NCBI GenBank assembly: GCA_937973635.1
Contig: CALJJZ010000068.1
Location: forward strand, 1-34,064
DNA: 34,064 bases
Direction: 5' to 3'
Source: an uncultured Bacillota bacterium
GTDB taxonomy: Bacteria > Bacillota > Dethiobacteria > DTU022 > UBA8154
A model generated the notes under the pieces. The model was not told the DNA's origin. It did no database searches and worked only from the letters and a program-made list of their open reading frames with translations. A program made the translations under genes and the position numbers. Shown one piece after another: positions 8,351 to 28,491 of this stretch (position 1 is its first letter; each line of letters begins with the position of its first letter).

Positions 8351-8413
8351 AGATTCTTCCTCCCAAATATAACTTTTTATTTTATCCAGACGAGAATGAT
8401 CTCGCGGTTCCCT

Positions 8414-10454: not shown

Positions 10455-10512
10455 CGCCGTCTCTCCTCCTTCTAACGCCAACCTCCTGGCAAGACATATC
10501 AATATAGGCTTA

Positions 10513-10523
10513 ATTTTATCATA
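10513..10523 (-). promoter_or_regulatory. Weak candidate -10 region for the sucCD-abfD operon
   Basis: The minus strand reads TATGATAAAAT here, which can supply TATGAT or TAAAAT about 60 bases before the SucC-like start. No convincing -35 hexamer is seen at the right distance. Confidence 0.25.
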
Positions 10524-10638
10524 AAATAAGCTCCTGATGGTAGTAGTCTGAAGTATTTTCATTTTCCTTTATTTTGTTTAGCAATGCTCATACAGGCAGG
10601 ATTAGGCCAAAGGTTCGCCAATTTTCTTGAATTTTCTT

Positions 10639-10667
10639 TTGAGTCCGCTGCACAGTTATGGTATGAT
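10639..10667 (+). promoter_or_regulatory. Promoter of the DUF1786 gene
   Basis: TTGAGT at 10639-10644 and TATGAT at 10662-10667 are 17 bases apart. The -10 is preceded by TGG, making it an extended -10. Transcription would start near 10674, about 50 bases before the ATG. Confidence 0.5.
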
Positions 10668-10724
10668 CCGACTACCCATGATCATTTTTTTTCTTTTCAC
10701 TTTACAAATTTGGAGTTGAAGCAA

Positions 10725-11774
10725 ATGACAGACAGGACGGAAAAGGCGATTTTAGCCATGGATATTGGCGGAGGCACCCAGGACATCCTCATCTATGAGG
10801 CAGGGGAAACCCCGGAAAATTATATCCAGCTTGTCCTCCCTTCCCCTACGGTAATCACAGCACAAAAAATTAACAAAGTTACGCAGGCAGGGAAGGGGCT
10901 GCACCTCAGCGGCACCATTATGGGCGGCGGCAAAAGCGTCGGCGCCATCAAAGCACACCTCAAAGCAGGTTTGCCCGTTACGGCGGAAGAGGAAGCGGCC
11001 CAAACCATTAAAGACGACCTCGCCCAGGTCAGGGCCCTGGGCATAGAGCTGGCAAACTCTCCCCCTCCCGGCTTTGAGACCGTGACAATGCAAGATGTGG
11101 ATTTAGATACCCTTGGCCGGGCCCTGGGGCTATATGGCATCAGGTTGCCCCGCGCTGTGGCCGTGGCAGTCCAGGATCACGGCGCAGCGCCGTCGGGAAA
11201 AAGCAACCGCGAGATCCGCTTTCAGCACTGGAAAAATTTTATAGAAAAAGGGGGCAAAGTCAGAGAGCTGGCTTATTTAACTGCCCCTCCTTACCTCACC
11301 AGGATGCAGGCCGTGCAAAAAACTGTGCCCGGCGCCCTGGTGATGGACACCTGCGCCGCTGCCGTATGGGGCTCCTTTGCCGATGACAAGATAAAAGAGA
11401 GACTCGCCCAAGGGGTTGTATTGGTAAACATAGGCAACCAGCATACCTTTGCCGTGCTCCTCCAGGGGGAGAGGATTTTCGGCTTATTTGAACACCATAC
11501 GCGCCTCCTCGATACAAGGAAGCTCTGCGCCATTATAAACAAACTGTGCCGCAGGGAACTTACCCATAAAGAGGTCTTTGACGATGGAGGCCACGGTTGT
11601 TACCTTGACCCGGAAACGCCGCCGGGCTTTACTTTCGTGGGAGTTACGGGACCCCGACGCTCTCTGGCGGCAGGCCAGAGCTTTTATCTGGTCAACCCCC
11701 ACGGCAACATGATGATGACCGGTTGCTTCGGCCTGGTGGAGGCGGCTCGCCATTATGGCCTTCTCTGTCCGTAA
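10725..11774 (+). CDS. DUF1786 (COG4012) ASKHA-like protein of unknown function
   Basis: A 349-residue protein that matches DUF1786 as I know it, a family scattered in methanogens and anaerobic bacteria. The N-terminal AMDIGGGTQDILIYE is a phosphate-1 loop like that of actin/hexokinase-type ATPases. A second glycine-rich stretch, LSGTIMGGGKSVGAIKAHL, lies near residues 55-75, and VLVNIGNQHTFAVLL near 230-245 looks like the phosphate-2 element. The ATG at 10725 is chosen because TTGGAG lies 9-10 bases upstream and the conserved region begins directly after it. The gene is divergent from the sucCD-abfD operon and precedes iorA in the same direction, but iorA has its own promoter. Some databases label the family as related to pyruvate-formate-lyase activation; the sequence gives no radical-SAM motif to support that. 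Confidence 0.7.
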   Translation: MTDRTEKAILAMDIGGGTQDILIYEAGETPENYIQLVLPSPTVITAQKINKVTQAGKGLHLSGTIMGGGKSVGAIKAHLKAGLPVTAEEEAAQTIKDDLAQVRALGIELANSPPPGFETVTMQDVDLDTLGRALGLYGIRLPRAVAVAVQDHGAAPSGKSNREIRFQHWKNFIEKGGKVRELAYLTAPPYLTRMQAVQKTVPGALVMDTCAAAVWGSFADDKIKERLAQGVVLVNIGNQHTFAVLLQGERIFGLFEHHTRLLDTRKLCAIINKLCRRELTHKEVFDDGGHGCYLDPETPPGFTFVGVTGPRRSLAAGQSFYLVNPHGNMMMTGCFGLVEAARHYGLLCP

Positions 11775-11806
11775 AAATTTAGGCACAGCAAAAACTTTTA
11801 GGCATA

Positions 11807-11835
11807 TTGACAATTGCGTGTCTATTTGCTAAGAT
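11807..11835 (+). promoter_or_regulatory. iorA promoter
   Basis: A perfect -35 TTGACA (11807-11812), a 17-base spacer and TAAGAT (11830-11835) with TGC just before it as an extended -10. The same TGCTAAGATAAA string occurs in the hydrogenase promoter near 21023. Transcription would start near 11842, at the edge of the palindrome described next. Confidence 0.65.
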
Positions 11836-11843
11836 AAAGGCTA

Positions 11844-11857
11844 AGCGAGCGCTCGCT
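11844..11857. promoter_or_regulatory. Palindromic operator in the iorA leader, probable TetR-family site
   Basis: AGCGAGCGCTCGCT is a perfect 14-bp palindrome, with the looser flanks TA and AA. It starts within a few bases of the expected transcription start and ends 11 bases before the RBS, so a bound protein would block the promoter. TetR-family repressors of acyl-CoA metabolism often use palindromes of this type. The TetR gene at 14453 is the natural candidate (inference). Confidence 0.55.
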
Positions 11858-11883
11858 AAGGATCTGCCAAGGAGGAATGAGCA

Positions 11884-13638
11884 TTGAAAAAACTAATGAC
11901 GGGAAACGAAGCTGTTGCCTACGGCGCTTACCTGAGCGGAGTTAAGGTAGGAGCGGCCTACCCCGGTACTCCCAGCACCCAGATCATGGAGAATTTTGCC
12001 ACATATCCAGGGGTTTTTGCCGAATGGGCACCCAACGAAAAGGTGGCCATGGATGTGGCCATCGGTGCAGCTTATGCCGGCACCAGGTCTATTGTCTCTA
12101 CCAAACACGTGGGTTTGAATGTCGCCGCCGATTCATTCTTTTATGCCGTCTATACAGGGTTGAACGCCGGAATGATTGTCTGCTGCGCCGACGACCCTGG
12201 TATGCACAGCTCCCAAAACGAACAAGACAATCGCAATTATGCTAAGTTCGCCAAAGCTCCCATGCTGGAACCAGCCGATAGCGAAGAAGCCAAACAATTT
12301 GCCGGTATCGGTATAGAAATCAGCGAAGCCTTTGATACTCCCGTACTTATCCGTTTCGTCACCAGGACCTCCCACTCTTCCTCCCTGGTGGATTACTCAC
12401 CGGACGCCGTGCCCGCCACTTACGAATCCAAGCCCTTTCCTAGGAATCCTGCCAAATACGTCATGGTGCCAGCCTTTGCCCGGGGACGCCATCCCATTAT
12501 TGAAGAAAAAATTAAAAAGCTGGCCGAGTACGCCGAGACTACACCCCTCAACCGCATTGAAATGGGAGACCCTTCGCTGGGTATTATCGCCGCTGGCTCG
12601 GTGTACCAGTATGCCCGGGAAGTTTTCCCCCACGCTTCCTTCCTTAAACTGGGCATGGTTTACCCCCTGCCGAAAAAAATGATCGAAAAATTTGCCGCCA
12701 GCGTCAAAGAGTTGATCGTGATCGAGGAACTAGATCCCTTCTTTGAAGAGCAGATTACCTGTATGGGCATTAAAGTAAGGGGTAAAGAGATCTTCCCCAT
12801 GATCGGCGAGTTCAGCCCCTCCCTCATCCGGCGTTGCGCCGCCGCCGCAGGGCTGCTGGAGATGAACGAGGAAGAAAAGGCTGCAGCGGAGCCTTCTCCA
12901 GAAGCAGCCGCCCTGCCCATCCGGCCGCCTATCCTCTGCCCCGGCTGCGGCCACCGCGGCATGTTTAACGTGCTCAGGGAAGCTGGTGTACTCGTTTTTG
13001 GCGATATCGGCTGTTATACGCTGGGCGTCGCCCCTCCCCTCAACGCCATGCATTTCACCGGGTGTATGGGGGCGAGCATCGGCGTGGCCCATGGCTTTGG
13101 CAAAGGCAAGACAAAGGAGCCGTACGTAGCTGTGCTGGGGGACTCCACCTTCTTCCATGCGGGGCTGCACCCCATCGTGGACGTGCTTTACAATAAAGGG
13201 GCTACAACCACGATTATTGCCGACAACCGCACCACCGGCATGACCGGCCACCAGCACCATCCCGGCACGGGCATGACTTTACAAAACGAGGAGACAGTGC
13301 GCGTAGATATTGCCGAGCTTGTCAAGAGCATGGGCTATAAAAAAGTAGACGTGGTCGATCCTTACGAGATGGACAAATTCGCCAAGATACTGAAGGATCA
13401 CCTGGCCAGCGAAGAACCTTCCGTCATCGTGGCTTTAAGGCCGTGCGCCCTGAAGGAAAAGGCAAACAGGCCTCCTCTGCACATCGATGCTGAGCTCTGC
13501 AGCAACTGTGGCACCTGCCTCGACCTGGGCTGCTCACCCTTGGTACAGGAAGAGGATCATGTCAGGATTGACCCGGTGCTCTGCAACGGCTGCGGCCTTT
13601 GCCAGCAAGTCTGCCCCATGGATGCTATCCAAAAATAG
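11884..13638 (+). CDS. iorA: Indolepyruvate:ferredoxin oxidoreductase, alpha subunit
   Basis: A 584-residue IorA, which with IorB oxidises arylpyruvates to aryl-acetyl-CoA and reduces ferredoxin. The N-terminal part (MTGNEAVAYGAYLSG, AAYPGTPSTQ) is the pyrimidine-binding domain. The thiamine-diphosphate domain has CPGCGHRGMF, GDIGCYTLG and a metal site GDSTFFHAG followed by NRTTGMTGHQ. Two Fe-S motifs end the chain: C539, C542, C545, C550 and C567, C570, C573, C577. The TTG at 11884 is chosen because AAGGAGG (11869-11875) lies 8 bases upstream; the ATG at 11896 would be too far. The promoter and palindrome upstream show regulated expression. Some IorA homologues take branched or other 2-ketoacids, so indolepyruvate is the likely but not the only substrate. 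Confidence 0.95.
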   Translation: MKKLMTGNEAVAYGAYLSGVKVGAAYPGTPSTQIMENFATYPGVFAEWAPNEKVAMDVAIGAAYAGTRSIVSTKHVGLNVAADSFFYAVYTGLNAGMIVCCADDPGMHSSQNEQDNRNYAKFAKAPMLEPADSEEAKQFAGIGIEISEAFDTPVLIRFVTRTSHSSSLVDYSPDAVPATYESKPFPRNPAKYVMVPAFARGRHPIIEEKIKKLAEYAETTPLNRIEMGDPSLGIIAAGSVYQYAREVFPHASFLKLGMVYPLPKKMIEKFAASVKELIVIEELDPFFEEQITCMGIKVRGKEIFPMIGEFSPSLIRRCAAAAGLLEMNEEEKAAAEPSPEAAALPIRPPILCPGCGHRGMFNVLREAGVLVFGDIGCYTLGVAPPLNAMHFTGCMGASIGVAHGFGKGKTKEPYVAVLGDSTFFHAGLHPIVDVLYNKGATTTIIADNRTTGMTGHQHHPGTGMTLQNEETVRVDIAELVKSMGYKKVDVVDPYEMDKFAKILKDHLASEEPSVIVALRPCALKEKANRPPLHIDAELCSNCGTCLDLGCSPLVQEEDHVRIDPVLCNGCGLCQQVCPMDAIQK

Positions 13639-13727
13639 GCAGACAAAACACGGTGCGGAACTAAACTAAAATTTTTATCAGAAAAGCAAGCCTGAAACAA
13701 TTTCTTAAGGAAGCGGAGGATGATCCG

Positions 13728-14315
13728 GTGAAAAAAATAGACTTCTTAAATACCGGCGTCGGAGGACAGGGCACTATTTTGGCAAGCAACATCCTGGCCA
13801 ACGTGGGCCTGGAGCTGGGGTATGACGTCAAAACAGCAGAGGTGCACGGCATGGCACAACGGGGAGGCTCGGTGGAAAGCCACGTCCGCTGGGGCGAAAA
13901 AGTCTACTCCCCCCTTGTGGAGCTAGGCAAAGCCGATTACCTAGTGGGTTTCGAGATGCTGGAAACAGGGCGCTGGCCCATGTACCTAAACAAAGATACG
14001 GTTGTGCTCTCCAACAGCTACCGTATCCCGCCCCCAGCCGTTAATCTGGGCAAAGCCGTTTACCCTTCGCAAAAGGAGATCGAAACCATCCTGACGAAAA
14101 AAGGCTCCAAAGTGTTTTGGCTTAACGCCACCGAAATCGGCAAAAACCTGGGCAACCCCGCCGTCTTGGGGGTTGTCATGCTGGGCGCCCTTTCCAATTT
14201 CGTCGGTGGAGCAGAAGAGGTCTGGCTCAAAGTAATCAAGGGCCTGGTCCCAGCTAGATTCCTGGAACTGAACCAGAAGGCTTTTCTGGCAGGCCGGGCG
14301 GTTAAATTCACCTGA
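13728..14315 (+). CDS. iorB: Indolepyruvate:ferredoxin oxidoreductase, beta subunit
   Basis: A 195-residue gamma-type domain protein typical of IorB. NTGVGGQGTILASNILA near the N-terminus is the conserved glycine-rich start, and EVHGMAQRGGSVESHVRWG is the family signature. It forms the catalytic complex with IorA. The start is GTG at 13728 with GGAGG about 10 bases upstream; 89 bases separate it from iorA with no terminator, so both are one transcript. A strong intrinsic terminator follows its stop codon. Confidence 0.94.
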   Translation: MKKIDFLNTGVGGQGTILASNILANVGLELGYDVKTAEVHGMAQRGGSVESHVRWGEKVYSPLVELGKADYLVGFEMLETGRWPMYLNKDTVVLSNSYRIPPPAVNLGKAVYPSQKEIETILTKKGSKVFWLNATEIGKNLGNPAVLGVVMLGALSNFVGGAEEVWLKVIKGLVPARFLELNQKAFLAGRAVKFT

Positions 14316-14353
14316 TCCGTCTTTAGTCATAAATAAACTGTAAAGTAACTTTG

Positions 14354-14398
14354 TCCGGCTGCTGTATAAGGAATAATCTGCAGCAGCCGGATTTTTTT
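14354..14398 (+). terminator. Intrinsic terminator after iorAB
   Basis: A perfect 11-bp stem TCCGGCTGCTG / CAGCAGCCGGA with a 16-base loop is followed directly by seven T residues (14392-14398). It is the clearest rho-independent terminator in the window and separates iorAB from the TetR-DUF35-thiolase group. Confidence 0.9.
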
Positions 14399-14452
14399 AA
14401 GTATTTTCCCATAACCTAACATCAACAAACAAGTTGCGCAGCAGGGGGCAAA

Positions 14453-15070
14453 ATGATGGTCATTAATGCAAACCAGGACAGCGCCACCGACCGCAGGCAA
14501 AAAATCATCGAGTCGGCCACCAGGCTTTTTTATGAGCTGGGCTATGACAATGCCTCGACCAGGGAGCTGGCCAAAGCGGCGGGGATGAGTAATGCCGGGA
14601 TTTATTACCATTTTAAAGACAAGGAAGACATCCTTTTCAGCATTCTGGATGGCTCGGTGAACAGGCTTATCCACTCCTTGCAGACTGCCATCAAAGCAGA
14701 AGACGACCCCCGGGTAAACCTGACCCGCATCTCACGCAGCTTACTGCAGGTAGTCCTGGACAACAAAATGGAAATCGGGCTCTTAAACAAAGAAAGCCAG
14801 AGGCTAAACCCGGAACAGCTAAAGGCCATAAACAGCAAAAAATATACAGCCCTGAAGATGATCGAAAAAGAAGTAAAACGGCTGGCCGACAAAAATATGC
14901 TCAAACCCCTTAATTTGACCACCGTAGCCTTTTCCCTCATCGCCATGACAAACTGGACCTATTTCTGGTATAATCCATCCGGGAGCCTCTCCGTTGACCA
15001 GCTCTCGGCGGAGATCCTGGAGATCTTTTTCCACGGGATCTTGCGCAAACCAAAGGACGCAGCTTTTTAA
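14453..15070 (+). CDS. TetR/AcrR-family transcriptional regulator
   Basis: A 205-residue repressor-type protein. Residues of about 12-60 are the TetR helix-turn-helix domain (IIESATRLFYELGYDNASTRELAKAAG, then SNAGIYYHFKDKEDIL). The C-terminal domain is helical and resembles those of FadR/KstR2-like regulators that sense acyl-CoA, though no ligand contact can be read from sequence. Start ATG with AGGGGG upstream; two further in-frame ATG-like choices lie within four codons. It stands between iorAB and the DUF35-thiolase pair. The palindrome in the iorA leader is its most likely target. No second copy of that palindrome was seen upstream of this gene. Confidence 0.9.
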   Translation: MMVINANQDSATDRRQKIIESATRLFYELGYDNASTRELAKAAGMSNAGIYYHFKDKEDILFSILDGSVNRLIHSLQTAIKAEDDPRVNLTRISRSLLQVVLDNKMEIGLLNKESQRLNPEQLKAINSKKYTALKMIEKEVKRLADKNMLKPLNLTTVAFSLIAMTNWTYFWYNPSGSLSVDQLSAEILEIFFHGILRKPKDAAF

Positions 15071-15088
15071 AATTTTGGAGCAGCAGCG

Positions 15089-15517
15089 GTGGTAAAAATG
15101 GCGGAAACAGGCCGGGACAGCCTTCTCTGGAATGGAAATACAGAAACGCCGGCCCTCCTTGCTTCCCGTTGCCGGGACTGCGGGACAAAGGGCTTCCCCC
15201 CACGTACCGTTTGCGGGCAGTGTTACAGCACCATCCAGGAAAGGATCACTCTCCCCCGGAGGGGGACTGTCTTTGCTTTCTGCCGCCTTTTTTCACGGGG
15301 AGACTCCTACGGCAAAGGGCCGCAAACGGTAGGCTACATTTTACTGGAAGACGGGATGCTCATCCCGGCGCGGCTCCTTTTTGGCGATGAGCTTCTGCAA
15401 ATAGGCACGCCCGTCGTCCTCTCCGCAGGGCCGGGCAAGCCACCCCCGGAGAAAACGGAGCAGCAAAGTGCTTATTATTTCGTCCCTGAAAACAAAGGTG
15501 AAGGAAGATGGAGATAG
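15089..15517 (+). CDS. Zn-ribbon/OB-fold DUF35 protein, partner of the thiolase
   Basis: A 142-residue protein with the DUF35 (ChsH2/YbgC-neighbour type) layout: an N-terminal rubredoxin-like zinc ribbon with C28, C31, C42 and C45, then an OB fold (GTVFAFCRLFSRG, TVGYILLEDG, IPARLLFG). DUF35 proteins form complexes with SCP-x-type thiolases or acyl-CoA dehydratases and help to bind acyl-CoA. The gene overlaps the thiolase gene by 10 bases, which supports such a complex. GTG at 15089 is favoured because GGAG ends 8 bases before it; ATG at 15098 is an alternative. It begins 18 bases after the TetR gene and is probably co-transcribed. Confidence 0.85.
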   Translation: MVKMAETGRDSLLWNGNTETPALLASRCRDCGTKGFPPRTVCGQCYSTIQERITLPRRGTVFAFCRLFSRGDSYGKGPQTVGYILLEDGMLIPARLLFGDELLQIGTPVVLSAGPGKPPPEKTEQQSAYYFVPENKGEGRWR

Positions 15518-16656
15518 CGGTAATCGGCCTAGGGATCACAAGGTTCGGGTATTTCCCCGGGCTCAGTCTGGAAAACCTGGCTGCGGAAGCCGTCCAAAAG
15601 GCCTTGGCAGATGCCGGCGTAGGGCCCGCCCATATCGATCTTGCCTGCAGCGCCAATGTCCTTGCCTCAAGCCTGCAGCAGGAATTTACCCTAGGGCAAA
15701 AAATATTATGGGAGCTGGGGATCAAGAAGATCCCCGTACTTAATCTGGAAAACGCCTGCAGCAGCGGCTCCAGCGCCTTTTACCTGACCTGCCTGGCCGT
15801 CCAGGCCGGGGCAGCGGAAATAGGGCTGGTCATCGGCACAGAAAAGATGCACCTGCCCGGAAACAGTATCCTCAGCGGTGCCGCTACAGGCGCAGCGGAG
15901 GCCCAGGCAGGTTTTTCCGTGCCCGCCCTCTTTGCCCTGAGGGCCAACCGCTATATGCACACATACGGCGCCACGGCCGCAGATCTGGCCTTGGTGGCCG
16001 TAAAAAACCGCCGCCACGCTTCTTTAAACCCCCTGGCCCAGTTCCGCGAGCCCATTACAACAGAAGACGTTTTAAATTCCACCCCTGTCGCCGGGCCCCT
16101 GACAAGGTTGAGCTGCTGCCCTTTAAGTGACGGCGCCGCCGCTGTGCTCATCTGCAACAAAAAAAGGGCGAAGCGCTACCAAAGCCGCCCCGTTTATGTC
16201 GCCGCTTCCGTCCTGCTCAGCGGCAGCTATACCAACCCTCCCTCCCTCACCGGCTGGGAGGTGGATGAACGGGCCGCCGCCAAAGCCTACGCCATGGCCG
16301 GGGCCGGGCCAGAAGATCTAGACGTGGTGGAGCTGCACGACGCCTTTACCATTGCGGAAATTATGCATTATGAAGGGCTGGGCCTGGCCGGGCCCGGGGA
16401 AGGGGTCAGGTTGCTAAAAGAAGGGGCAACAAGCCTTGGCGGCAGCATCCCCGTCAACCCCGGCGGCGGCTTGCTTTCCAGGGGGCATCCCCTAGCAGCC
16501 ACGGGAGTTGCCCAGATCGCCGAAATCGCCCTGCAGCTAAGGGGCGAAGCGGGAGCAAGGCAGGTGCCTGGCGCCAGGCTGGGGCTGGCCCATTGCATGG
16601 GAGGAGATCTCCAGGGTGACGCCCGCTCAGTAACCGTGCATATTTTAAAAAAATAA
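15508..16656 (+). CDS. SCP-x-type thiolase (acetyl-CoA acetyltransferase family)
   Basis: A 382-residue thiolase of the sterol-carrier/lipid-transfer branch. The nucleophilic cysteine is C84 in ENACSSGSSA; H277 in ELHDAFT and H327 in SRGHPLAATG are the conserved histidines, and C363 in AHCMGGD is the second cysteine. This branch acts in thiolytic cleavage or condensation of 3-oxoacyl-CoA and usually works with a DUF35 protein, as is encoded directly before it with a 10-base overlap. The substrate cannot be told: it could use acetoacetyl-CoA from the 4-hydroxybutyrate route or longer or aromatic acyl-CoA. Its stop codon is separated by a single base from that of the convergent aminotransferase. 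Confidence 0.9.
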   Translation: MEIAVIGLGITRFGYFPGLSLENLAAEAVQKALADAGVGPAHIDLACSANVLASSLQQEFTLGQKILWELGIKKIPVLNLENACSSGSSAFYLTCLAVQAGAAEIGLVIGTEKMHLPGNSILSGAATGAAEAQAGFSVPALFALRANRYMHTYGATAADLALVAVKNRRHASLNPLAQFREPITTEDVLNSTPVAGPLTRLSCCPLSDGAAAVLICNKKRAKRYQSRPVYVAASVLLSGSYTNPPSLTGWEVDERAAAKAYAMAGAGPEDLDVVELHDAFTIAEIMHYEGLGLAGPGEGVRLLKEGATSLGGSIPVNPGGGLLSRGHPLAATGVAQIAEIALQLRGEAGARQVPGARLGLAHCMGGDLQGDARSVTVHILKK

Positions 16657-16657
16657 G

Positions 16658-17833
16658 CTAACCTTTTTTTGCTTTAGATTGTGCCAGAAAAGATTGCAGG
16701 CGGTCCAGGCCCTCTGCTATCTTTTCCAGGGAGTTGGCGTAGGAGATGCGCAGGTGCCCCTCGGCATGGGGGCCGAAATCTACGCCCGGCGTCACGGCCA
16801 CCTTTGCCTTTTCCAGGATTTCAAAGGCAAAGGACAGGGAATCGGAGGTATAGGCGCGCGTATCGGCAAGCACATAAAAGGCGCCTTTCGGCTCCACCGG
16901 GGGCGCAATGCCCATGCCCCGCAGGCGCTCCAGCAGGTAGCAGCGGCGGCGATCATACATCTCCACCATGGCAGCCACGTGGCTGTCGCACCGAGTCAGG
17001 GCGGCGAGGGCCGCCTCCTGGACGAAGGAAGCGGCACAGATAAAAAGGTTTTGCTGCAGCCTCTGCAGGGGACGGACATAGGCGGGGGGCGCAATAACAT
17101 AGCCCAGGCGCCAGCCGGTCATGGCATAGACCTTGGAAAACCCGCCGATGACCAAGGCATTTTCTGTAAATTCCAGAATGGTGTGCGCTTCTTCCCCGTA
17201 AACCAGGCCGCCGTAGACCTCGTCGGAGACAATGGGGCAACCTAGATCTGCCAGCTCCGCCAGCTCGTGGCCGTTATAGACAGCGCCGGTGGGGTTGGCC
17301 GGAGAATTGAGGAGCAGGGCGGCAGTGGCCGGGCCTATTGCTTTCTTCAGGGCCGCGGGGTGATATTTAAAGCCCTCCTCTCCCCGGACAGGCAAATAAA
17401 CAGGTTTGCCGCCGAGGTAACGGATAAAATTGGGGTAGCAGGCATAGTGGGGATCAGGCAGGATTACCTCCCGCCCCTCCTCCATCAGCACGGAGAGGGC
17501 CAGCAGTAACCCGGGGGAGCTGCCGGAGGTGACGATGATCTGCTCCGGCGCCAGGCTCACACCGTATTTGCGCCGGTAAAAGGCAGTAATGGCCTCCCGC
17601 AGCGTAAGTTTGCCCAGGCTGTGGGTATAATGGGTGTCTCCCGCCGCCAGAGCCCGCTGTGCCGCCTCTCTGATAGGTTCAGGCGTATCGAAATCGGGTT
17701 CCCCGATCTCCAGGTGGATTATCTCCTCGCCCCGCCCTTCCAGCTCCTTTGCCCTTTCCAGCACATCCATGACAATAAAGGAGGTTATCTCCTTTGCCCT
17801 TGCCGCACATACGGGTCCTTTTTCGCGCTGCAC
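16658..17833 (-). CDS. PLP-dependent aminotransferase, class I/II
   Basis: A fold-type I aminotransferase of the aspartate/aromatic group. The conserved start is RAKEITSFIVMDVLERAKELE. LEIGEPDFDTPEPI, NSPANPTGAVY and SDEVYGGLVY are family blocks. The PLP lysine is in GGFSKVYAMTGWRLGY and the carboxylate-binding Arg in LRISYA near the end. The GTG at 17833 gives 391 residues, the usual length, but its RBS is modest (GGGGGCGG). An ATG at 17938 preceded by AAGGA would add 35 unconserved residues, so the start is uncertain. Beside iorAB this enzyme could supply arylpyruvates from aromatic amino acids (inference from context). Confidence 0.9.
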   Translation of the reverse strand: MQREKGPVCAARAKEITSFIVMDVLERAKELEGRGEEIIHLEIGEPDFDTPEPIREAAQRALAAGDTHYTHSLGKLTLREAITAFYRRKYGVSLAPEQIIVTSGSSPGLLLALSVLMEEGREVILPDPHYACYPNFIRYLGGKPVYLPVRGEEGFKYHPAALKKAIGPATAALLLNSPANPTGAVYNGHELAELADLGCPIVSDEVYGGLVYGEEAHTILEFTENALVIGGFSKVYAMTGWRLGYVIAPPAYVRPLQRLQQNLFICAASFVQEAALAALTRCDSHVAAMVEMYDRRRCYLLERLRGMGIAPPVEPKGAFYVLADTRAYTSDSLSFAFEILEKAKVAVTPGVDFGPHAEGHLRISYANSLEKIAEGLDRLQSFLAQSKAKKG

Positions 17834-17968
17834 AATTTCCGCCCCCGGTATTTTGATCTGGTTTTTATTTAATTCAGCATTATTTAAGGCAGATCCTTTT
17901 AAAAAAGAACACCATAAATTATGATAATATAGATGCAAACCGTTTCCTTATCGATCCCTTTAAGTAAA

Positions 17969-17974
17969 GAGGTG
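17969..17974 (+). promoter_or_regulatory. RBS pointing to an AUA start for the nitrilase-like gene
   Basis: GAGGTG (within AAAGAGGTG) is followed after 7 bases by ATA at 17982, which is in frame with the nitrilase-like protein and at its natural N-terminus. The GTG at 17986 is out of frame and runs into TGA four codons later. The in-frame TTG at 17997 is 22 bases from the site. Confidence 0.5.
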
Positions 17975-17981
17975 ACTCCTC

Positions 17982-18881
17982 ATACGTGCGGCAGCCTTGA
18001 ATTTTGCCGGCTGCGATTTTAGGCAGCGGCAGGGCTTTCTGGAGTATATTTACTCCCACGTTAAACCCGCTGCGGGAAATGAGCCTTTCCTGCTCGTTTT
18101 CCCTGCCCATCTGGCTCTCCTCTATGCCTTTCACCGCGGTGACCTAGGCGCCGCCTCAGATTTTGGGCAGGCCGTTTCCGCTTTCCTTGAACTGCCGCCG
18201 GGCTGGCAGGATCATTACCTGGAACTGCATAGCTATATTGCTCGCCGTCTGCAGGCCTATCTCGTGCCCGGTACCGTTTTAAAGACGGAAGAGGGGCAGA
18301 TCTATCACGAAGCCTGGCTCATCTCTGACAAAGGAGAGGTAAGAGGCAGCCAGCGTCAGCTTTTTCTTTCCCGGGAAGAACGGGAACTGGGCTGGTCCCG
18401 CGGCGACACAGCCGCATCCTTCTCCACGGCTCTGGGAAAACTGGGCATCATCATAGGGACAGACGCCTGGTATCCCGAGGTGGGCCGTGTCCTAGCCCTG
18501 CAGGGAACGGAGATCCTTTGCCACTGCGGAGCACTGGCAGCCGGGGAAAACAAATGGCGGCAGCTGGCAGGCAGCTGGCAGCAGGTACAACAAAACCAGT
18601 TTTTCTGTGTTGAAAGCCAGCTGGTGGCAGCGTTGCCCGGTCGGGCCTGGGGTGCACCTTCTCTGATCCACGCGCCCTGCGAAATGACCGCCGGGTTTAC
18701 CGGTATCCTGGCCGGAGACACAGAGACGGGGGCATATACAAACTATCTCGAAGCCAGTCTCAACAAGGAGGCGCGTCGGGCGGTCATCCGCAACTATCCC
18801 CTGCTTAAGCTTTTAAACCCGGCGTTCTGCCGCTACCCCGACAGCCTTTCAGCGGAGGAGGAGCATGCAAATAAAAATTAA
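17982..18881 (+). CDS. Nitrilase-fold pseudoenzyme (catalytic triad lost)
   Basis: The fold matches the carbon-nitrogen hydrolase family, here 299 residues if translation begins at the AUA codon (TTG at 17997 is the canonical alternative). The usual triad is absent. FPE becomes FPAH (Glu to Ala, residue 42). The Lys of the RKTHLF-type block becomes RQLFL (Lys to Gln, about 126). The nucleophilic Cys of the ICYDxWFPE-type block becomes IGTDAWYPE (Cys to Gly, 159). The surrounding framework is otherwise well kept. It overlaps the next gene, an intact nitrilase homologue, by 17 bases, which suggests a heteromer with a structural or regulatory partner. It is divergent from the aminotransferase. 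I cannot assign a substrate. Confidence 0.8.
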   Translation: MRAAALNFAGCDFRQRQGFLEYIYSHVKPAAGNEPFLLVFPAHLALLYAFHRGDLGAASDFGQAVSAFLELPPGWQDHYLELHSYIARRLQAYLVPGTVLKTEEGQIYHEAWLISDKGEVRGSQRQLFLSREERELGWSRGDTAASFSTALGKLGIIIGTDAWYPEVGRVLALQGTEILCHCGALAAGENKWRQLAGSWQQVQQNQFFCVESQLVAALPGRAWGAPSLIHAPCEMTAGFTGILAGDTETGAYTNYLEASLNKEARRAVIRNYPLLKLLNPAFCRYPDSLSAEEEHANKN

Positions 18882-19914
18882 GGAAAAATTATTCTTACAG
18901 CAACTCAAATGGCGGACACGTCCTTCCCTGATTAGGCGCCACCTGCAGCGCAAGCGGTTCTGGTTTACCCGTAACTGTAGGAAGCTAACAAGGCGCAACA
19001 TCAAAGTAGGCGCCACCCAGGTGTTGGCGAAGTTGTACCACAACCCCCTGGACTACGCCGACGAAATGTACCGGCATGTGCAGCGGGCCGCCGCCGCAGG
19101 CGTCCAGCTCCTGGCTTTTCCCGAGAACAACTCCCTGCAGCTCCTCGGCTTATTTCCGGGAGTGCAAGCCCTCTTGGAAAAGCAGGCTTCCGGCAGGCCG
19201 AGCAGAGAAGAGCTGCTCCATTTTGCCGCGCCATTCATAAACAGAGTGGCTCTTCAGGTCTTTGCCTGCCTCTCCAAGGCCTTCGGCATTTATATTATGG
19301 CAGGGAGTTCCCCTTATCCTGAGGGTAAAATCATACGAAACAGGTCATTTCTCTTTGGGCCCGACGGCATGCAGTTAGGGCAACAGGACAAAGTGCACCT
19401 CATGCCTCTGGAGCAAAGCTGGGGCTTCTCTGCCGGCGAGCGTTTCAGCATTATAGAGACACCTCTGGGACGCCTGGCCATGCCTATTTGCATGGACGCA
19501 AGCTTTTTTGAAACTTTCCGCTCCCTGGAGCAGCAGGGCGCAGAGATAGTGATCGTGCCCATCGCCAATACCGAGCCGTACAACTTCTGGCTGGCCTTAC
19601 GGGGTATCTGGCCCCGGGTCCAGGAAAGCACCGTTTATGGCCTTAAAAGCGCCCTTGTAGGCGAGTTGCTGGGTTTTACCCTCACCGGCAGGGCTGGTGT
19701 CTTTGCCCCTCTGGAGCTTACGCCGGACCGGGACGGTGTCCTCTGTGAAGCGCGGCACTTTGACCGGGAAGCGCTGCTTACCGCCGTCTTGGACCTAGAG
19801 GCGCTGGCAGAGCTGAGAAGAAACCACCCTTACCTGGGTGATGCTAACCCTTCTTTTAGCCAAAAATATTTCCCCGCTGCTTACAGCTTAAAGCTCAAGG
19901 ACCCTCAGGATTAA
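18865..19914 (+). CDS. Carbon-nitrogen hydrolase (nitrilase superfamily)
   Basis: A 349-residue protein with a complete Glu-Lys-Cys triad: E87 in LAFPENN, K176 in QQDKVHLMPLEQ and C209 in LAMPICMDASFF. Residue E183 fits the second conserved glutamate. These enzymes hydrolyse amides, carbamoyl groups or nitriles. An N-terminal extension of about 45 residues is rich in Lys and Arg and precedes the normal first strand (NIKVGATQV). It might bind nucleic acid, membrane or the partner protein, or the true start might be later. The ATG at 18865 has GGAGGAGGAGC directly upstream, which supports it. It is translationally coupled to the triad-less paralogue. Confidence 0.85.
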   Translation: MQIKIKEKLFLQQLKWRTRPSLIRRHLQRKRFWFTRNCRKLTRRNIKVGATQVLAKLYHNPLDYADEMYRHVQRAAAAGVQLLAFPENNSLQLLGLFPGVQALLEKQASGRPSREELLHFAAPFINRVALQVFACLSKAFGIYIMAGSSPYPEGKIIRNRSFLFGPDGMQLGQQDKVHLMPLEQSWGFSAGERFSIIETPLGRLAMPICMDASFFETFRSLEQQGAEIVIVPIANTEPYNFWLALRGIWPRVQESTVYGLKSALVGELLGFTLTGRAGVFAPLELTPDRDGVLCEARHFDREALLTAVLDLEALAELRRNHPYLGDANPSFSQKYFPAAYSLKLKDPQD

Positions 19915-20047: not shown

Positions 20048-20054
20048 GATGACC

Positions 20055-20897
20055 TTGCCTGAGCACAATGGTAAACATGAACTTATCCATTGTATTGTCG
20101 CCGCAGCTCCTTTTTTCCAGAAACTCAGCAACGCAGACGTAGCTATTGCCGTGGCAGATAAGAACCAGACCCTGCTGGAATATATCCCAGGCGAAAAAAT
20201 CGACCATAAGCAGACAGTGGGCGGCCTCTGCCCTGAACAAACCATCCTGTGGCAGTCGGTAATGGCAAACAAGAGGCTGGTAAAAAAAGTAGGCAAAGAA
20301 GTATTTGGTTTCCCTTATCTGGGGATCGGCATCCCGATTAAAGACGAAAAAGGGAATATCGTCGGCGGCATCTCCGTTACCCAGGCCCTGGACAAACAAG
20401 ACGTCCTTTTAAATATGGCTGACAACCTGCAAAAAACTATTCGGGAAACTAGTGCCGCCACGGAAAAACTGGCCGGGGAGGCCCAAGAGCTTTCAGCCAT
20501 CGGCGATACCCTTTCCCAGCTATCCAAAGTGCTGATAAATGAAGTGGCGGAAACGGACGGCGTCTTAAAGATAATTAAAAAAATTACCGGCCAGACCAAC
20601 CTTCTCGGCCTCAACGCCTCCATTGAGGCGGCCCGCGTCGGCGAAAAAGGCAGAGGTTTTGGTGTGGTGGCGGATGAAATCAGGAAGCTGGCGGAACACA
20701 GTACTAATTCTTTAAAACAGATTGAGGCTATCTTACATACATTGCGCAATGTAAGCGACCAGATCAGCGAAGTCATCGGCAGCATCGGGGAGATATCCAG
20801 CAGCCAGGCCGAAGACGCGCAAAAAGTGGCGGAGACTGTCCAAAATATCAGTATGATGGCGGACAAATTACTGGCCTACTCAGAGGAAATGTTTTAA
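20055..20897 (+). CDS. Soluble methyl-accepting chemotaxis-type transducer
   Basis: A 280-residue protein without any membrane segment or HAMP domain. The first about 115 residues form a small sensory module ([33 protein letters not shown]) resembling a PAS/GAF-like or heme/metal-sensing domain. The rest is a short MCP signalling coiled coil with the hairpin tip [38 protein letters not shown]. Length and layout resemble the short soluble transducers such as YfmS of Bacillus. No che or fla gene is nearby. The gene is alone, with its own RBS and a terminator, and precedes the hydrogenase operon. A link to hydrogen or redox taxis is possible but unsupported. Confidence 0.88.
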
Positions 20898-21601: not shown

Positions 21602-22750
21602 ATGATGGGCAAACAATTAAAACAAGAAGATAACAGTCTGACCAAGTTGGAGTTCAGAGGGATCTCCCGGCGCGCTTTTTTAAAGTTTTGCGCCGCCACC
21701 GCCGTAATGCTGGGTCTGGATAGTTCTTACGGTTGGATGTTTGCTGAAGCAGCACAAGAAGCAATGAAGAAAAAGCCGGTGATCTGGATCCAAGGGCAGG
21801 GTTGTACCGGTTGCAGTGCTTCGCTCCTCTCCTCGTTTAACCCGGGACCAGCAGAGATTTTGCTGGACATGGTTTCCATGCGGTTTAACACCACCATCGC
21901 AGGAAATACCGGCCACATCAGCGCCCAAGTGCTGGCAGAAACCTTAAAAGAAGAAGGTTACCTGCTGGCTATCGAAGGTTCCATCCCCCTGGAAGACCCC
22001 CGTTACTGCATCGTGGAGGGGATGGATTTTAAAGATCTGGTATTAAAAGCAGCCAAAAACGCCGAAGCCGTCGTCGCCGTGGGCACATGTGCCACTTACG
22101 GGGGCATTCCCCGGGCCGGACTGACGGGAGCGGTAGGTGTAACAGAAGTAGTCAAAGATAAGCCGGTGGTAAACGTCCCTGGCTGCCCCATGAACCCGGC
22201 CTGGTTGATGGGCACGCTGCTTTATTACTTAACCTTCAAGGAGCTCCCCGCCCTGGATAAAGCCGGCAGGCCCGCTGCTTATTTCGGCAACCACAACATA
22301 CATGATACCTGTCCTCGTGTCTCTTTCTATGAAAGGGGAGAATTCCTTACCGACTGGAACGACCCGGCCACGGCCAACTGGTGCCTGCTCCTCGCTGGCT
22401 GCAAGGGCCCCGTAACCTATGCCGATTGCAACCGCAACTTCTGGAACGACGGGGTAAGTAGCTGCATCCGTTCGGGAGCCCCCTGCGCTGGGTGCGTACA
22501 ACCCCAGTTTTATGCAGATTTTGCCCCCCTCTATGCTCCTCTTTTTGTGCCACAGCCCAAAGGCACAGAGCAACCCGTTACAACCCCGGGTCCGGCCCCG
22601 GTACAACCGGTTCCCCCGGAAAAAAGCGGCCTGGATCTCAAGTCTGTAATCCTCGGCGCCGCCATCGCCGCCGCCCCGGTGGTGGCTAATAAAGCGGCAA
22701 ACACCTTGAAAAAAAATAAAAGCGAAAAAGGGGAGGTAAAGCATGGCTAA
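21602..22750 (+). CDS. [NiFe] hydrogenase small subunit, Tat-exported, group 1-like
   Basis: A 382-residue small subunit. A twin-arginine signal (ISRRAFLKFC, residues 21-30) is followed by a hydrophobic stretch, so the enzyme faces outwards. The proximal [4Fe-4S] cluster uses C68, C71, C163 and C195; no extra cysteines of the oxygen-tolerant type are seen. The distal cluster uses H234, C237, C261 and C267. The medial site has C276, C288, C295 and C298; C288 replaces the usual Pro, so a [4Fe-4S] rather than [3Fe-4S] cluster is expected. The C-terminus has a Pro-rich linker (about 318-340) and a short hydrophobic stretch (349-362), possibly an anchor. AAAGGAGG precedes the ATG. It overlaps the large subunit by 8 bases. 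Confidence 0.94.
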   Translation: MMGKQLKQEDNSLTKLEFRGISRRAFLKFCAATAVMLGLDSSYGWMFAEAAQEAMKKKPVIWIQGQGCTGCSASLLSSFNPGPAEILLDMVSMRFNTTIAGNTGHISAQVLAETLKEEGYLLAIEGSIPLEDPRYCIVEGMDFKDLVLKAAKNAEAVVAVGTCATYGGIPRAGLTGAVGVTEVVKDKPVVNVPGCPMNPAWLMGTLLYYLTFKELPALDKAGRPAAYFGNHNIHDTCPRVSFYERGEFLTDWNDPATANWCLLLAGCKGPVTYADCNRNFWNDGVSSCIRSGAPCAGCVQPQFYADFAPLYAPLFVPQPKGTEQPVTTPGPAPVQPVPPEKSGLDLKSVILGAAIAAAPVVANKAANTLKKNKSEKGEVKHG

Positions 22751-24329
22751 GATCGTAGTCGATCCCTTAACCAGAATCGAAGGACACCTCAAGGCCGAAG
22801 TAGAGGTAGAAAACGGTGTCATCGTCGATGCCCGCTGCAGCGGTACCATGTTTCGGGGTCTAGAGCAGATCGTCCTCGGCAAAGACCCCCGGGACGTGCC
22901 CTATGTGGTGGAAAGGGCTTGCGGCGTCTGTACAGGCGTGCATGGGGAGGCCGCCTGCATGGCAATCGAGGAGGCACAAGGCGCCACCGTGCCGGAAATG
23001 GGCCGGGTAATCAGGAACTTGATGATGGGCGCCCTCTGGTTGCATGACGGGGTGCTCCATTTTTATCACCTTACCGCCCTAGATTATATCGACGCCACGG
23101 CAGTGCTGCAGTACAAGGGCAACGTCCCAGAGCTGGTGGCCATAAAAGAAAAAATTAAAGCGCTGGCGGAGGCAGGGGACCTCCATCCCCTTCTGCCCAC
23201 CTACCCTCCCGATGATTTTTGCGTAGGCGACCCGGACCTGGTCACCCAGCTGGTCTACCATTACCTCAAAGCCCTGGAGATCCAGGCCAAAGGCAGAAAG
23301 GCTGCGGCCATCTTCGGGGGCAAGCAGCCGCACCATGCCAGCATGATCCCCGGCGGCGTTACCATTATCCCCACTGTCAGCCAGATCGAGCATTTCCGGG
23401 GCATAATCAGGGAGATTGTTTCCTTTGTTAAAAACGTTTACCTCCCCGACGCCAAGCTGCTGGCCACGGGGCCCCTGCTCCCCCTGGAACAAGCCTCAGT
23501 AGGTGCCACGGCGGGACATTACCTAAGCTACGGAGGATTTGCTCTGGACAGCAGCCGCACTAAGTATCTTTTCCCCAGCGGCGTAATCTTTGACAATGAC
23601 TTTAACAATGTCCTGCCCTTTAAGCGGGAAGAGATCACGGAAGAAGTAGGCTATGCCTGGTATAAGGACGAGGCCAGACCTGCTCATCCCTTTGAGCGGA
23701 AGGTGGAAGTGGACCTGGAAAAACAAAGGGCCTATACCTTTGTGCAGGCACCGCGCTACCAGGGCAAGCCCATGGAAGTAGGGCCCCTGGCCCGGATGCT
23801 GGTTATGCAGTATCCTCCCTTCATGGAGTTACTAAGGACGTACAACATTACACGCCCTGGGACAGTCATGCGCCACGCCGCCAGGGCCCTGGACACCCTG
23901 GTCATGGCCGATGCCATCGGTGCCTGGGTGGACGAGCTGCTGCAGCTGGTGGGAGAAACAGGGCTCTATACCAAAGGAGACAACGCCCTCATCCACGATA
24001 CGGATAAGTGGGAGCCGGTGGAGAAGGGCCAGGGCGCAGGCCTGAATGAGGCCCCCCGGGGCGCCCTGGGGCACTTCATCACCATTGCCGACAAAAAAGT
24101 AGAGAGGTACCAGATGGTTGTGCCCACGACCTGGAACTTCTCGCCCCGCGACGACAGGGGGCAGCTGGGGCCCATTGAAGAAGCCCTTATCGGGACACCG
24201 GTGCCCGATCCCGACAACCCCATCAACGTGGGCCGTGTGATCCGTTCCTTCAACCCGTGCCTTGCCTGCGCCATCCACGTGATCCATCCCAGGGGGGACA
24301 AAAAAATTAATCTATCTCCGGTTTTTTAA
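22743..24329 (+). CDS. [NiFe] hydrogenase large subunit
   Basis: A 528-residue catalytic subunit. RIEGHL near residue 11, the N-terminal ligand pair C60 and C63 in RACGVC, and the C-terminal pair C506 and C509 in NPCLACAIH bind the Ni-Fe site. The normally invariant Asp before Pro-Cys is Asn here (N504); the other canopy residues, Pro-Arg in EAPRGALGHF and Asp in TALDYID, are present. A 16-residue tail follows H512 and should be cut off by the maturation protease encoded next. It is exported folded with the small subunit by its Tat signal. No gene for a cytochrome b or other quinone-linking subunit follows, so the electron acceptor is unclear. Confidence 0.94.
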   Translation: MAKIVVDPLTRIEGHLKAEVEVENGVIVDARCSGTMFRGLEQIVLGKDPRDVPYVVERACGVCTGVHGEAACMAIEEAQGATVPEMGRVIRNLMMGALWLHDGVLHFYHLTALDYIDATAVLQYKGNVPELVAIKEKIKALAEAGDLHPLLPTYPPDDFCVGDPDLVTQLVYHYLKALEIQAKGRKAAAIFGGKQPHHASMIPGGVTIIPTVSQIEHFRGIIREIVSFVKNVYLPDAKLLATGPLLPLEQASVGATAGHYLSYGGFALDSSRTKYLFPSGVIFDNDFNNVLPFKREEITEEVGYAWYKDEARPAHPFERKVEVDLEKQRAYTFVQAPRYQGKPMEVGPLARMLVMQYPPFMELLRTYNITRPGTVMRHAARALDTLVMADAIGAWVDELLQLVGETGLYTKGDNALIHDTDKWEPVEKGQGAGLNEAPRGALGHFITIADKKVERYQMVVPTTWNFSPRDDRGQLGPIEEALIGTPVPDPDNPINVGRVIRSFNPCLACAIHVIHPRGDKKINLSPVF

Positions 24330-24405
24330 ATGCTACTGTGTTGGAAAGATAGAGAGAGACATATTTTAAAGAAAGAAGGTCGCACAGGAGGTCAGGTGAA
24401 GCAAG

Positions 24406-24440
24406 AAGGCCCGCTCCCCGGAGCGAGGGAAGCGGGCCTT
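24406..24440 (+). other. GC-rich hairpin between structural and maturation genes
   Basis: AAGGCCCGCT (24406-24415) and AGCGGGCCTT (24431-24440) form a perfect 10-bp stem with a 15-base loop, 20 bases before the maturation protease gene. No T-run follows, so it is more likely an mRNA processing, stabilising or partial-attenuation element than a full terminator. Confidence 0.5.
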
Positions 24441-24459
24441 TACAGTTAAGGAGGGGACG

Positions 24460-24978
24460 ATGATTATTAAAGCAGATAACCTTCACCAAAAGGAAACGGT
24501 TAAAGAAAAGGTGCTAATTTTAGGCATAGGCAACGTTTTTTGCAAAGACGACGGTATCGGTTCCGTCATCGCCAGGAACTTGGTCCCCTTCTACCATGGG
24601 AAAAACGGCGCCGATGTCCTCGACGGCGGGACTACAGGGCTGGGGCTGCTGTACCTTTTTCAGGAATATGCCCGGATCATCATCATCGACGCCGTAGATA
24701 TGCAGGCAGAAGCAGGAGAGGTATTTGTCTTCAGCCCTGCAGACCTGCAAAAGGTGGTTCCTGCCAGAGTAGTTTCCACACACCAGCCGGGAGTTTTACA
24801 GCTGCTCCAGCTGGGGAAAGCTACTGACATGGTGCCTGAAGAGGTCCTTATCCTGGGCGTGCAGATAAAGGAGCTAGGCAATACTTATGGGCTCAGCGAA
24901 GAGCTGCTGCAAAAAATGCCTGTAATCGAAAAGAAAATTAGGCGGGCTATCGAAGCCTATTTGAGCTGTGATGCATGA
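24460..24978 (+). CDS. Hydrogenase maturation protease (HyaD/HybD family)
   Basis: A 172-residue endopeptidase that removes the C-terminal tail of the large subunit after nickel insertion. Family blocks are ILGIGNVFCKDDGIGSVIAR with the first metal-binding acid, IIIDAVDMQ with the second, and STHQPGV with the metal-binding His. The start ATG has AAGGAGGGG close upstream. It comes 130 bases after the large subunit, past a hairpin, and overlaps hypA by 8 bases, tying the structural and hyp genes into one operon. Confidence 0.92.
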   Translation: MIIKADNLHQKETVKEKVLILGIGNVFCKDDGIGSVIARNLVPFYHGKNGADVLDGGTTGLGLLYLFQEYARIIIIDAVDMQAEAGEVFVFSPADLQKVVPARVVSTHQPGVLQLLQLGKATDMVPEEVLILGVQIKELGNTYGLSEELLQKMPVIEKKIRRAIEAYLSCDA

Positions 24979-25312
24979 ATTGTCCATCGTTTCTTCCTTA
25001 ATCGAAATTATCTCCAAAGACGCCCAAGGAAAAGGGCTGCGCGAGGTTACCTTTGTCCGCCTGGTAATCGGCGCCCTCTCCGCTGCTAGTCCCAAGGCCG
25101 TGGAGTTTGCCTTGGAGTATGCTACAAAAGGGACCATCCTGGAAGGGGCACAGGTAGAGATCGCTGTGGAAGAAGCAAAGAGCCGCTGCACAGGCTGTGC
25201 GACTCTCTTTGAGCCCCAGCTCCCTTTCCTCCTGTGCCCCGCCTGTGGCAAACCGGCTTCTTGTTTTCCCCAGGGCCGAGATGTTTACATTGACTATTAC
25301 GAGGGGGAATAA
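24971..25312 (+). CDS. hypA: Hydrogenase nickel-insertion chaperone HypA
   Basis: A 113-residue HypA. The essential MHE N-terminus, whose His binds nickel, fixes the ATG at 24971 rather than the GTG one codon before it. The zinc loop has CTGC (about 75-78) and CPAC (about 92-95). HypA works with HypB to deliver Ni to the large subunit. It overlaps the protease gene by 8 bases and ends 2 bases before hypB. Confidence 0.95.
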   Translation: MHELSIVSSLIEIISKDAQGKGLREVTFVRLVIGALSAASPKAVEFALEYATKGTILEGAQVEIAVEEAKSRCTGCATLFEPQLPFLLCPACGKPASCFPQGRDVYIDYYEGE

Positions 25313-25314
25313 GC

Positions 25315-25977
25315 GTGCGCGTTTACCTGGCCAAAAAACTGCGCGAGGCCAATAGCAACAATGCGGCGGATAACCGCAGGTTCCTAGAGCAATATGGAGT
25401 TTTGATGGTAAATATCATGGGGTCGCCTGGTTGCGGCAAAACATCCCTACTAGAAGAGACGCTGCGCCGTCTTTCCAGCAGATATCGCCTTGCCGTCATC
25501 GAAGGAGACCTCTATACGGCAGAGGACGCTGAGAGGCTTAAGCCCTGGGCAGCGGAAATTGTGCAGATTAACACGGAAGGCGGCTGCCACCTGGAGGCCA
25601 ACCTGATCGGGCAGCTGCTGACCAGCGACTCCCCTGCGCTGCTACAAACGGAAATGCTCTTTGTAGAAAATATCGGCAACCTGATCTGCCCCGCCGAGTT
25701 CGACCTGGGAGAAGACTTAAGGGTTACCCTTTTAAGTGTGACGGAAGGGAACGACAAGCCGCGCAAATATCCCCTTGCTTTTAAAGAAGCACAGGCTACG
25801 CTGATTACCAAGACAGACCTGCTGGCATATGTAAATTTTAGCCTGGAGCAAGCGATGCTGGATCTAAAGAAACTTAATGCTGAAGGCGCAATCTTCCCTC
25901 TCTCGGTAAAAACGGGTGAAGGAGTGGAAAACTGGTGCCACTGGCTGGAGCAAAAATTGGCAGAAAAAAGGAAATAA
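25315..25977 (+). CDS. hypB: Hydrogenase nickel-incorporation GTPase HypB
   Basis: A 220-residue SIMIBI-class GTPase. The P-loop is GSPGCGKTS (36-44), the base-recognition motif ITKTDLL, and the metal site lies in EGGCHLEA in the G domain. The N-terminal CxxCGC nickel motif and His-rich stretch of some HypB proteins are absent, so it cannot store nickel. The GTG start has GAGGGGG just upstream. Gene order hypA-B-F-C-D-E follows without gaps. Confidence 0.95.
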   Translation: MRVYLAKKLREANSNNAADNRRFLEQYGVLMVNIMGSPGCGKTSLLEETLRRLSSRYRLAVIEGDLYTAEDAERLKPWAAEIVQINTEGGCHLEANLIGQLLTSDSPALLQTEMLFVENIGNLICPAEFDLGEDLRVTLLSVTEGNDKPRKYPLAFKEAQATLITKTDLLAYVNFSLEQAMLDLKKLNAEGAIFPLSVKTGEGVENWCHWLEQKLAEKRK

Positions 25978-28479: not shown

Positions 28480-28491
28480 GGCAAATAGAAT

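What the first reader, a model, noticed from the sequence alone, without database searches (positions are those of the whole stretch)
17982..19914. Nitrilase pair: a triad-less pseudoenzyme coupled to an intact enzyme
The first protein keeps the nitrilase framework but has Glu to Ala, Lys to Gln and Cys to Gly at the three catalytic places. The second has all three (E87, K176, C209) and a basic 45-residue N-terminal extension. The genes overlap by 17 bases. Loss of all three residues with a conserved fold and coupled translation points to a selected heteromeric complex in which the dead subunit shapes the active site, the filament or the regulation.
Basis: partly seen in the sequence, partly recalled or inferred. 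Interest (0 to 1): 0.7.

Follow-up and report, generated by a model that had tools for sequence, protein, structure and literature searches.

The report
Dead-plus-live nitrilase gene pair
Two neighbouring genes encode related enzymes, one with its catalytic residues gone and one intact; this dead-and-live pair is kept together, sometimes fused into one protein, in more than 100 other bacterial genomes, so the dead half is a selected partner of the live one and not a decaying gene.

Summary
Protein A (about 17982-18881) has the nitrilase fold (AlphaFold2 pLDDT 93) but Ala, Gln and Gly at the Glu/Lys/Cys sites; protein B (18865-19914) has E87, K176, C209 and a basic N-terminal extension; the 17-base overlap is real. 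At least four lineages have A and B fused in frame; the AlphaFold2 model of one natural fusion (pTM 0.81) holds the halves in a defined arrangement. A is under purifying selection as strong as B's. Conservation in A peaks on the helices that I recall as the nitrilase dimer interface. Best reading: an enzyme-pseudoenzyme heteromer in which the dead subunit supports the live active site. In many Bacillota the pair sits beside a GH125-like glycosidase and a sugar symporter, suggesting breakdown of an amide-bearing glycoside; this genome lacks that glycosidase. Complex, activity and substrate are unproven. A has ATA, not a usual start codon, at the conserved start position.

The parts
17966..17975 (+). 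AGAGGTGA ribosome-binding-site-like stretch before gene A
   Evidence: sequence; about 7 bases before ATA 17982, about 22 before TTG 17997
17982..18881 (+). Gene A: triad-less nitrilase-fold protein (pseudoenzyme); start ATA 17982 inferred, TTG 17997 the alternative; open frame from 17976
   Evidence: Pfam CN_hydrolase 51.7 bits; AF2 pLDDT 93.4, pTM 0.89; Foldseek best PDB matches are nitrilase-superfamily proteins, E 2e-17
18105..18107 (+). A: codon at the catalytic Glu site, Ala (A44 counted from 17976)
   Evidence: alignment
18357..18359 (+). A: codon at the catalytic Lys site, Gln (Q128); Gln in 111 of 113 A rows
18456..18500 (+). A: Gly at the nucleophile site (G161) and the following helix alpha5 (residues 161-175), the most conserved element of A
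18552..18596 (+). A: helix alpha6 (residues 193-207), second conserved interface-type helix
18854..18863 (+). GGAGGAGGAG ribosome-binding-site-like stretch of gene B, inside gene A
   Evidence: sequence
18865..18881 (+). 17-base overlap of genes A and B
18865..19914 (+). Gene B: nitrilase-superfamily enzyme with intact Glu-Lys-Cys triad (E87, K176, C209) and the fourth tetrad residue E183
18865..18999 (+). B: basic N-terminal extension (45 residues, 16 K/R, 1 D/E)
   Evidence: basic extensions also in most unfused B relatives
19123..19125 (+). B: catalytic Glu codon (E87)
19390..19392 (+). B: catalytic Lys codon (K176)
19489..19491 (+). B: nucleophile Cys codon (C209)

Best explanation
A is a conserved pseudoenzyme that forms a heterodimer (or a larger heteromer built from A-B units) with its active paralogue B, through the alpha5/alpha6 surface that nitrilase-superfamily proteins normally use to dimerise. 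B carries out ordinary Glu-Lys-Cys hydrolysis, most likely of a small amide. Because alpha5 starts at the nucleophile, a partner packed there would help hold B's active site in shape; A keeps the docking surface and gives up catalysis, so each heterodimer has one working site. Overlapping genes in this lineage, or one polypeptide in fused lineages, would make the two together. In many relatives B's substrate or product probably belongs to glycoside catabolism (GH125-like glycosidase plus sugar symporter next door). SHOWN: A is triad-less as a family, lies with B, is fused to B in several lineages, is under purifying selection, is sister to B and is co-inherited with it. INFERRED: the physical complex in this organism, the docking surface, support or activation of B, amide chemistry, the sugar link.
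For: A followed by B in every locus with room, over 30 loci of the same order, 73 named loci and most of 40 regions from a phylum-wide sample. Triad loss is general in A and nearly absent in B (A Lys-to-Gln 111/113; B Cys present in 105 of 106 rows that cover the site). In-frame A-B fusions: L108, L128, L182, L184, L185, L186, at four or more places of the tree. AF2 of the L128 fusion: pTM 0.81 with about 86 disordered residues, which needs a confident arrangement of the two halves. dN/dS of A mostly 0.09-0.25, like B. A and B are each one clade and neighbours in the tree; 24 of 49 splits shared between the A and B trees, shuffles at most 3. Conservation in A peaks at alpha5 (3.63 bits) and alpha6 (3.12) against 1.57-1.89 for outer helices. 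Glycosidase link: 39 of 45 genomes with F1 also have a strong A, 29 of them within 3 kb.
Against: No experiment; no direct heterodimer model of the window's own two proteins (only a natural fusion of a relative, whose B half had a two-row alignment, and its coordinates could not be inspected). Conservation at alpha5/alpha6 is expected of any nitrilase fold. Co-inheritance follows from adjacency. The GH125-like gene is missing from the window's genome, so the sugar link may not hold here. The non-ATG start of A in the window leaves a small chance that this particular copy is damaged.
Confidence: 0.72

Rival explanations
1. A is an independent protein (ligand-binding sensor or scaffold, for example for the GH125-like enzyme) that is co-expressed with B but does not form a stable complex with it.
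For: The pair is linked to a glycosidase and a transporter in many genomes, so A could bind other partners.
Against: Repeated A-B fusions, defined arrangement of the halves in the fused model, strongest conservation on dimer-type helices, A not seen without a second CN-hydrolase-type protein behind it where the contig allows.
Confidence: 0.12
2. A has a new catalytic activity with other residues in the old pocket, so A and B are two different enzymes acting side by side or in sequence.
For: Some polar residues are invariant or nearly so in A (Q128, D163, E168, N207, C235).
Against: D163, E168 and R171 correspond to the alpha5 motif also seen in active nitrilases (alignments); C235 is Val in several deep lineages (L111, L116, L119, L123, L125); the nucleophile site drifts among G, A, S, D, H and C, unlike a re-purposed site.
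Confidence: 0.1
3. A is a decaying duplicate of B.
For: No usual start codon at the conserved position in the window.
Against: Open frame and the same triad loss in more than 100 genomes, dN/dS mostly 0.09-0.25; 69% identity to the same-genus relative with the frame intact.
Confidence: 0.02
4. The two have unrelated functions and stay adjacent only because a tandem duplication was never broken up.
For: A and B are paralogues side by side, neighbouring clades in the tree.
Against: The neighbourhood outside the pair is reshuffled between lineages while the pair stays; bins of other phyla, if correctly binned, carry both (L058, L114, L127); repeated fusions.
Confidence: 0.04

Closest known systems
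Nitrilase superfamily (Pfam PF00795 CN_hydrolase), e.g. Nit2, N-carbamoylputrescine amidase, Helicobacter pylori 6mg6
   Same: Both proteins have the fold; B has the Glu-Lys-Cys triad and the fourth (CEEK) glutamate.
   Different: A lacks the triad throughout its family; neither protein reaches any NCBIfam function-level cut-off.
Poaceae NIT4A/NIT4B heteromeric nitrilases (Jenrich et al. 2007, as described in PMC3537687 and PMC5154151)
   Same: Nitrilases whose activity depends on a heteromer of two paralogues.
   Different: Plant enzymes of the NIT4 branch; I did not test their triads, and the texts read do not describe a triad-less subunit. Ours is bacterial, operonic, with a dead subunit.
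Trypanosome prozyme systems: AdoMetDC/prozyme (PMC5201418) and deoxyhypusine synthase with its dead paralogue (PMC3663545)
   Same: A catalytically dead paralogue joins the live enzyme; in AdoMetDC an N-terminal segment is involved.
   Different: Other folds, eukaryotes, and there activation is measured; here it is inferred.
NitFhit Rosetta Stone fusion (PMC9913352)
   Same: A nitrilase-fold protein fused to its functional partner.
   Different: Partner is Fhit, not a dead nitrilase.
GH125 exo-alpha-1,6-mannosidases (PDB 2nvp, 3qt9, 5m7i), relatives of the neighbour F1
   Same: F1 matches their C-terminal half and keeps the two acids aligned with D220 and E393 of the Clostridium perfringens enzyme (catalytic role of those two is from memory).
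   Different: F1 is longer, matches only part of the model, and is not in the window's genome.

Membership tests
Nitrilase superfamily (protein B) | CN_hydrolase fold/profile | tested here: met
   60.2 bits, cut-off 23.2
Nitrilase superfamily (protein B) | Glu-Lys-Cys triad plus second Glu | tested here: met
   E87, K176, E183, C209 invariant in alignment A5
Nitrilase superfamily (protein B) | Hydrolysis of a nitrile or amide C-N bond | not testable with these tools
   no assay; no function-level model reached
Nitrilase superfamily (protein A) | Alpha-beta-beta-alpha fold | tested here: met
   AF2 pLDDT 93.4; Foldseek best hits are nitrilase-superfamily structures
Nitrilase superfamily (protein A) | Catalytic triad | tested here: not met
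   Ala, Gln, Gly; family-wide loss. A shares fold and descent but is not filed as a working member.
Enzyme-pseudoenzyme heteromer (prozyme type) | Dead subunit is a paralogue of the live one | tested here: met
   neighbouring clades, SH-aLRT 84 for A and 99 for B
Enzyme-pseudoenzyme heteromer (prozyme type) | Dead subunit conserved and co-occurring with the live one | tested here: met
Enzyme-pseudoenzyme heteromer (prozyme type) | Physical complex | tested here: inconclusive
   natural fusions and one fused model; no direct complex
Enzyme-pseudoenzyme heteromer (prozyme type) | Dead subunit raises or alters activity of the live one | not testable with these tools
   needs enzymology
Poaceae NIT4A/NIT4B heteromers | Member of the plant NIT4 branch | not tested
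   no NIT4 sequences placed in the tree; NIT4 (6i00) is only a distant hit

The most novel reading that the evidence does not exclude
A widespread three-part bacterial system, pseudo-nitrilase plus nitrilase plus GH125-like glycosidase, acting as one complex on an imported amide-bearing glycoside, in which the dead subunit is both the structural support of the amidase and a docking point for the glycosidase (one genome, L183/G311, has B and the glycosidase in a single open frame).
Probability: 0.2. Interest if true: 0.75.

Novelty: new variant of a known kind. Interest (0 to 1): 0.6.

Why it matters
The dead-paralogue activators found in the papers read here are from trypanosomatids. This would be a large bacterial case inside a superfamily used in industry, with natural intermediates preserved (lineages that still keep Glu, others that still keep Cys, fused and unfused lineages), so how an enzyme loses catalysis but keeps a partner role becomes directly testable. 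It also means that many proteins annotated simply as carbon-nitrogen hydrolases are probably not enzymes, and it offers a function hook (GH125-like glycosidase, sugar symporter) for an uncharacterised family.

Tried and rejected
Decay of A: rejected. A joint alignment of A and B rows on the fused protein collapsed A rows onto the B half whatever MAFFT option was used, so the fused model was made with A rows and the two fusions only. Genome context of the window (aminotransferase, hydrogenase) as a clue to substrate: rejected, not conserved with the pair even in the same family. polA-mutM-coaE-isocitrate/isopropylmalate dehydrogenase neighbours in a related family: order shared within one family, taken as chromosomal neighbourhood and not function. 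Purine and tRNA-synthetase neighbours in some deep lineages: same. A GH125 gene elsewhere in the window's genome: not found. Literature for a triad-less nitrilase-superfamily subunit: nothing in the held open-licence papers with the terms tried, which leaves subscription papers unchecked.

Full report
WHAT IS THERE. Two forward genes lie between a reverse aminotransferase-like gene (16658-17938) and a methyl-accepting-type sensor gene (20049-20897). Gene A ends at 18881, gene B runs 18865-19914, and they overlap by 17 bases. Both proteins match Pfam CN_hydrolase above the curated cut-off, A with 51.7 and B with 60.2 bits, but neither reaches a function-level NCBIfam cut-off. The genome holds three further CN_hydrolase genes elsewhere. 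Counted from the open frame at 17976, A has Ala44, Gln128 and Gly161 at the Glu, Lys and Cys places; B has Glu87, Lys176 and Cys209. In AtNIT4 the fourth residue of the CEEK tetrad lies seven residues after the lysine (K163, E170; PMC6637149); at that spacing B has E183, invariant, and A has E135, nearly invariant.

START OF A. The open frame has no ATG, GTG or TTG where relatives start. ATA stands at 17982, well spaced behind AGAGGTGA; a start at TTG 17997 would cut off most of the first strand. The same-genus relative has GTG there. A non-canonical start or a one-base indel in this assembly both fit; the rest of the frame is intact.

RELATIVES OF A ARE TRIAD-LESS TOO. Among 60 relatives 45 gave a match, and those with a strong A have B next to it. 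A scan of one genome per species gave 73 further loci, in Dethiobacter-like and other Bacillota and a few other bins (Candidatus Hakubella, a Spirochaetales and a Myxococcales bin; binning not checked). Wherever the contig goes on, B follows A. In a sample of 299 genomes of the phylum 56 had a strong A. Forty regions read around such hits show the same order, except three regions fetched for a lone, more distant B, and two (L189, L197) whose second protein is strongly diverged. Over 113 A rows the Lys site is Gln in 111; the Cys site is Gly in 92, otherwise Ala, Ser, Asp, His, and Cys in four (L182, L184, L186, L194); the Glu site is Ala or Gly in most readable rows and Glu only in L116, L119, L123. 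The Cys-keeping rows branch first in A, so the likely order is Lys lost first, Cys and Glu later and separately. B keeps the triad; one B (L188) has Gly at the Cys place.

SELECTION AND DESCENT. dN/dS of A between near relatives is mostly 0.09-0.25, 0.22 for the window against its same-genus relative, and like B in the same pairs; L112/L113 and L175/L198 are higher. In the rows sampled A and B are each one clade, with modest support for A (SH-aLRT 84) and long-branch outgroups. Their trees share 24 of 49 splits; 2000 label shuffles shared at most 3. That shows joint inheritance, which adjacency alone would also give.

FUSIONS. L108 and L128 carry A and B in one open frame of 729 and 687 codons, as do L182, L184, L185 and L186. 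They fall in at least four places of the tree. In four of the six fused proteins (two lineages) B's basic N-terminal extension is replaced by a Gly/Pro/Ala-rich linker, while most unfused B proteins have a basic extension; a docking role for the extension is plausible but not shown. AlphaFold2 on the natural L128 fusion gave pTM 0.81 and mean pLDDT 81 with about 86 poorly ordered residues. Two 300-residue domains without fixed relation would not be expected to reach that pTM, so the model holds them in a defined arrangement. I could not read the coordinates, and the B half rested on two sequences.

STRUCTURE AND SURFACE. The window's A gave pLDDT 93.4 and pTM 0.89; best PDB matches are the H. 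pylori carbon-nitrogen hydrolase and yeast Nit3. Conservation per element in A is highest in the helix after the nucleophile place (3.63 bits) and in helix 193-207 (3.12), lowest in helices 18-28 and 63-92 (1.48-1.89). In the superfamily dimers form across the A-interface (PMC6637149); that these two helices make it is from my own knowledge of the family.

NEIGHBOURS AND POSSIBLE SUBSTRATE. In deep lineages the pair lies beside a GH125-like glycosidase (F1) and a GPH sugar symporter (F2) in varying order. F1 is found in 45 of 299 genomes, 39 of them with a strong A; 29 of these have both within 3 kb (Fisher p 4e-29, genomes not independent). F1 keeps the acids aligned with D220 and E393 of the C. 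perfringens GH125 protein. One genome has B and F1 in a single open frame, which could be an assembly fault. A PIG-L deacetylase joins in four loci. This suggests breakdown of an amide-bearing glycoside. The window's genome has no F1, so the role there may differ, and the substrate stays open.

VERDICT. A conserved enzyme-pseudoenzyme pair, most likely a heteromer. The kind is known (prozymes, PMC5201418, PMC3663545; heteromeric plant nitrilases, PMC3537687); a triad-less subunit in this superfamily is not described in the papers I could search.

Noticed in passing
17960-18000: Gene A has ATA where relatives have ATG, GTG or TTG; one extra base relative to the same-genus relative suggests a non-canonical start or an assembly indel.
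   Followed up: partly
L183:1825-5550 (minus strand): One genome has B and a GH125-like domain in a single 1242-codon open frame; only the two matches were placed, the join was not checked.
   Followed up: partly
L200, L201, L202: Lone, more distant B-like proteins without any A neighbour form a separate clade next to B; a natural control for what B does without A.
   Followed up: partly
L189, L197: Pairs in which the second protein is itself strongly diverged around the nucleophile (FAGEEQ, FCGEEQ); L189's second protein has no Cys there, so both subunits may be dead.
   Followed up: no
window 6914-16656: By eye: a 4-hydroxybutyryl-CoA dehydratase-like flavoprotein, succinyl-CoA-synthetase-like subunits, indolepyruvate ferredoxin oxidoreductase-like subunits and a thiolase-like protein in a row; looks like an amino-acid fermentation island.
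   Followed up: no
window 21602-30640: By eye: NiFe hydrogenase small and large subunits followed by maturation genes (protease, HypB-, HypF-, HypD-, HypE-like).
   Followed up: no
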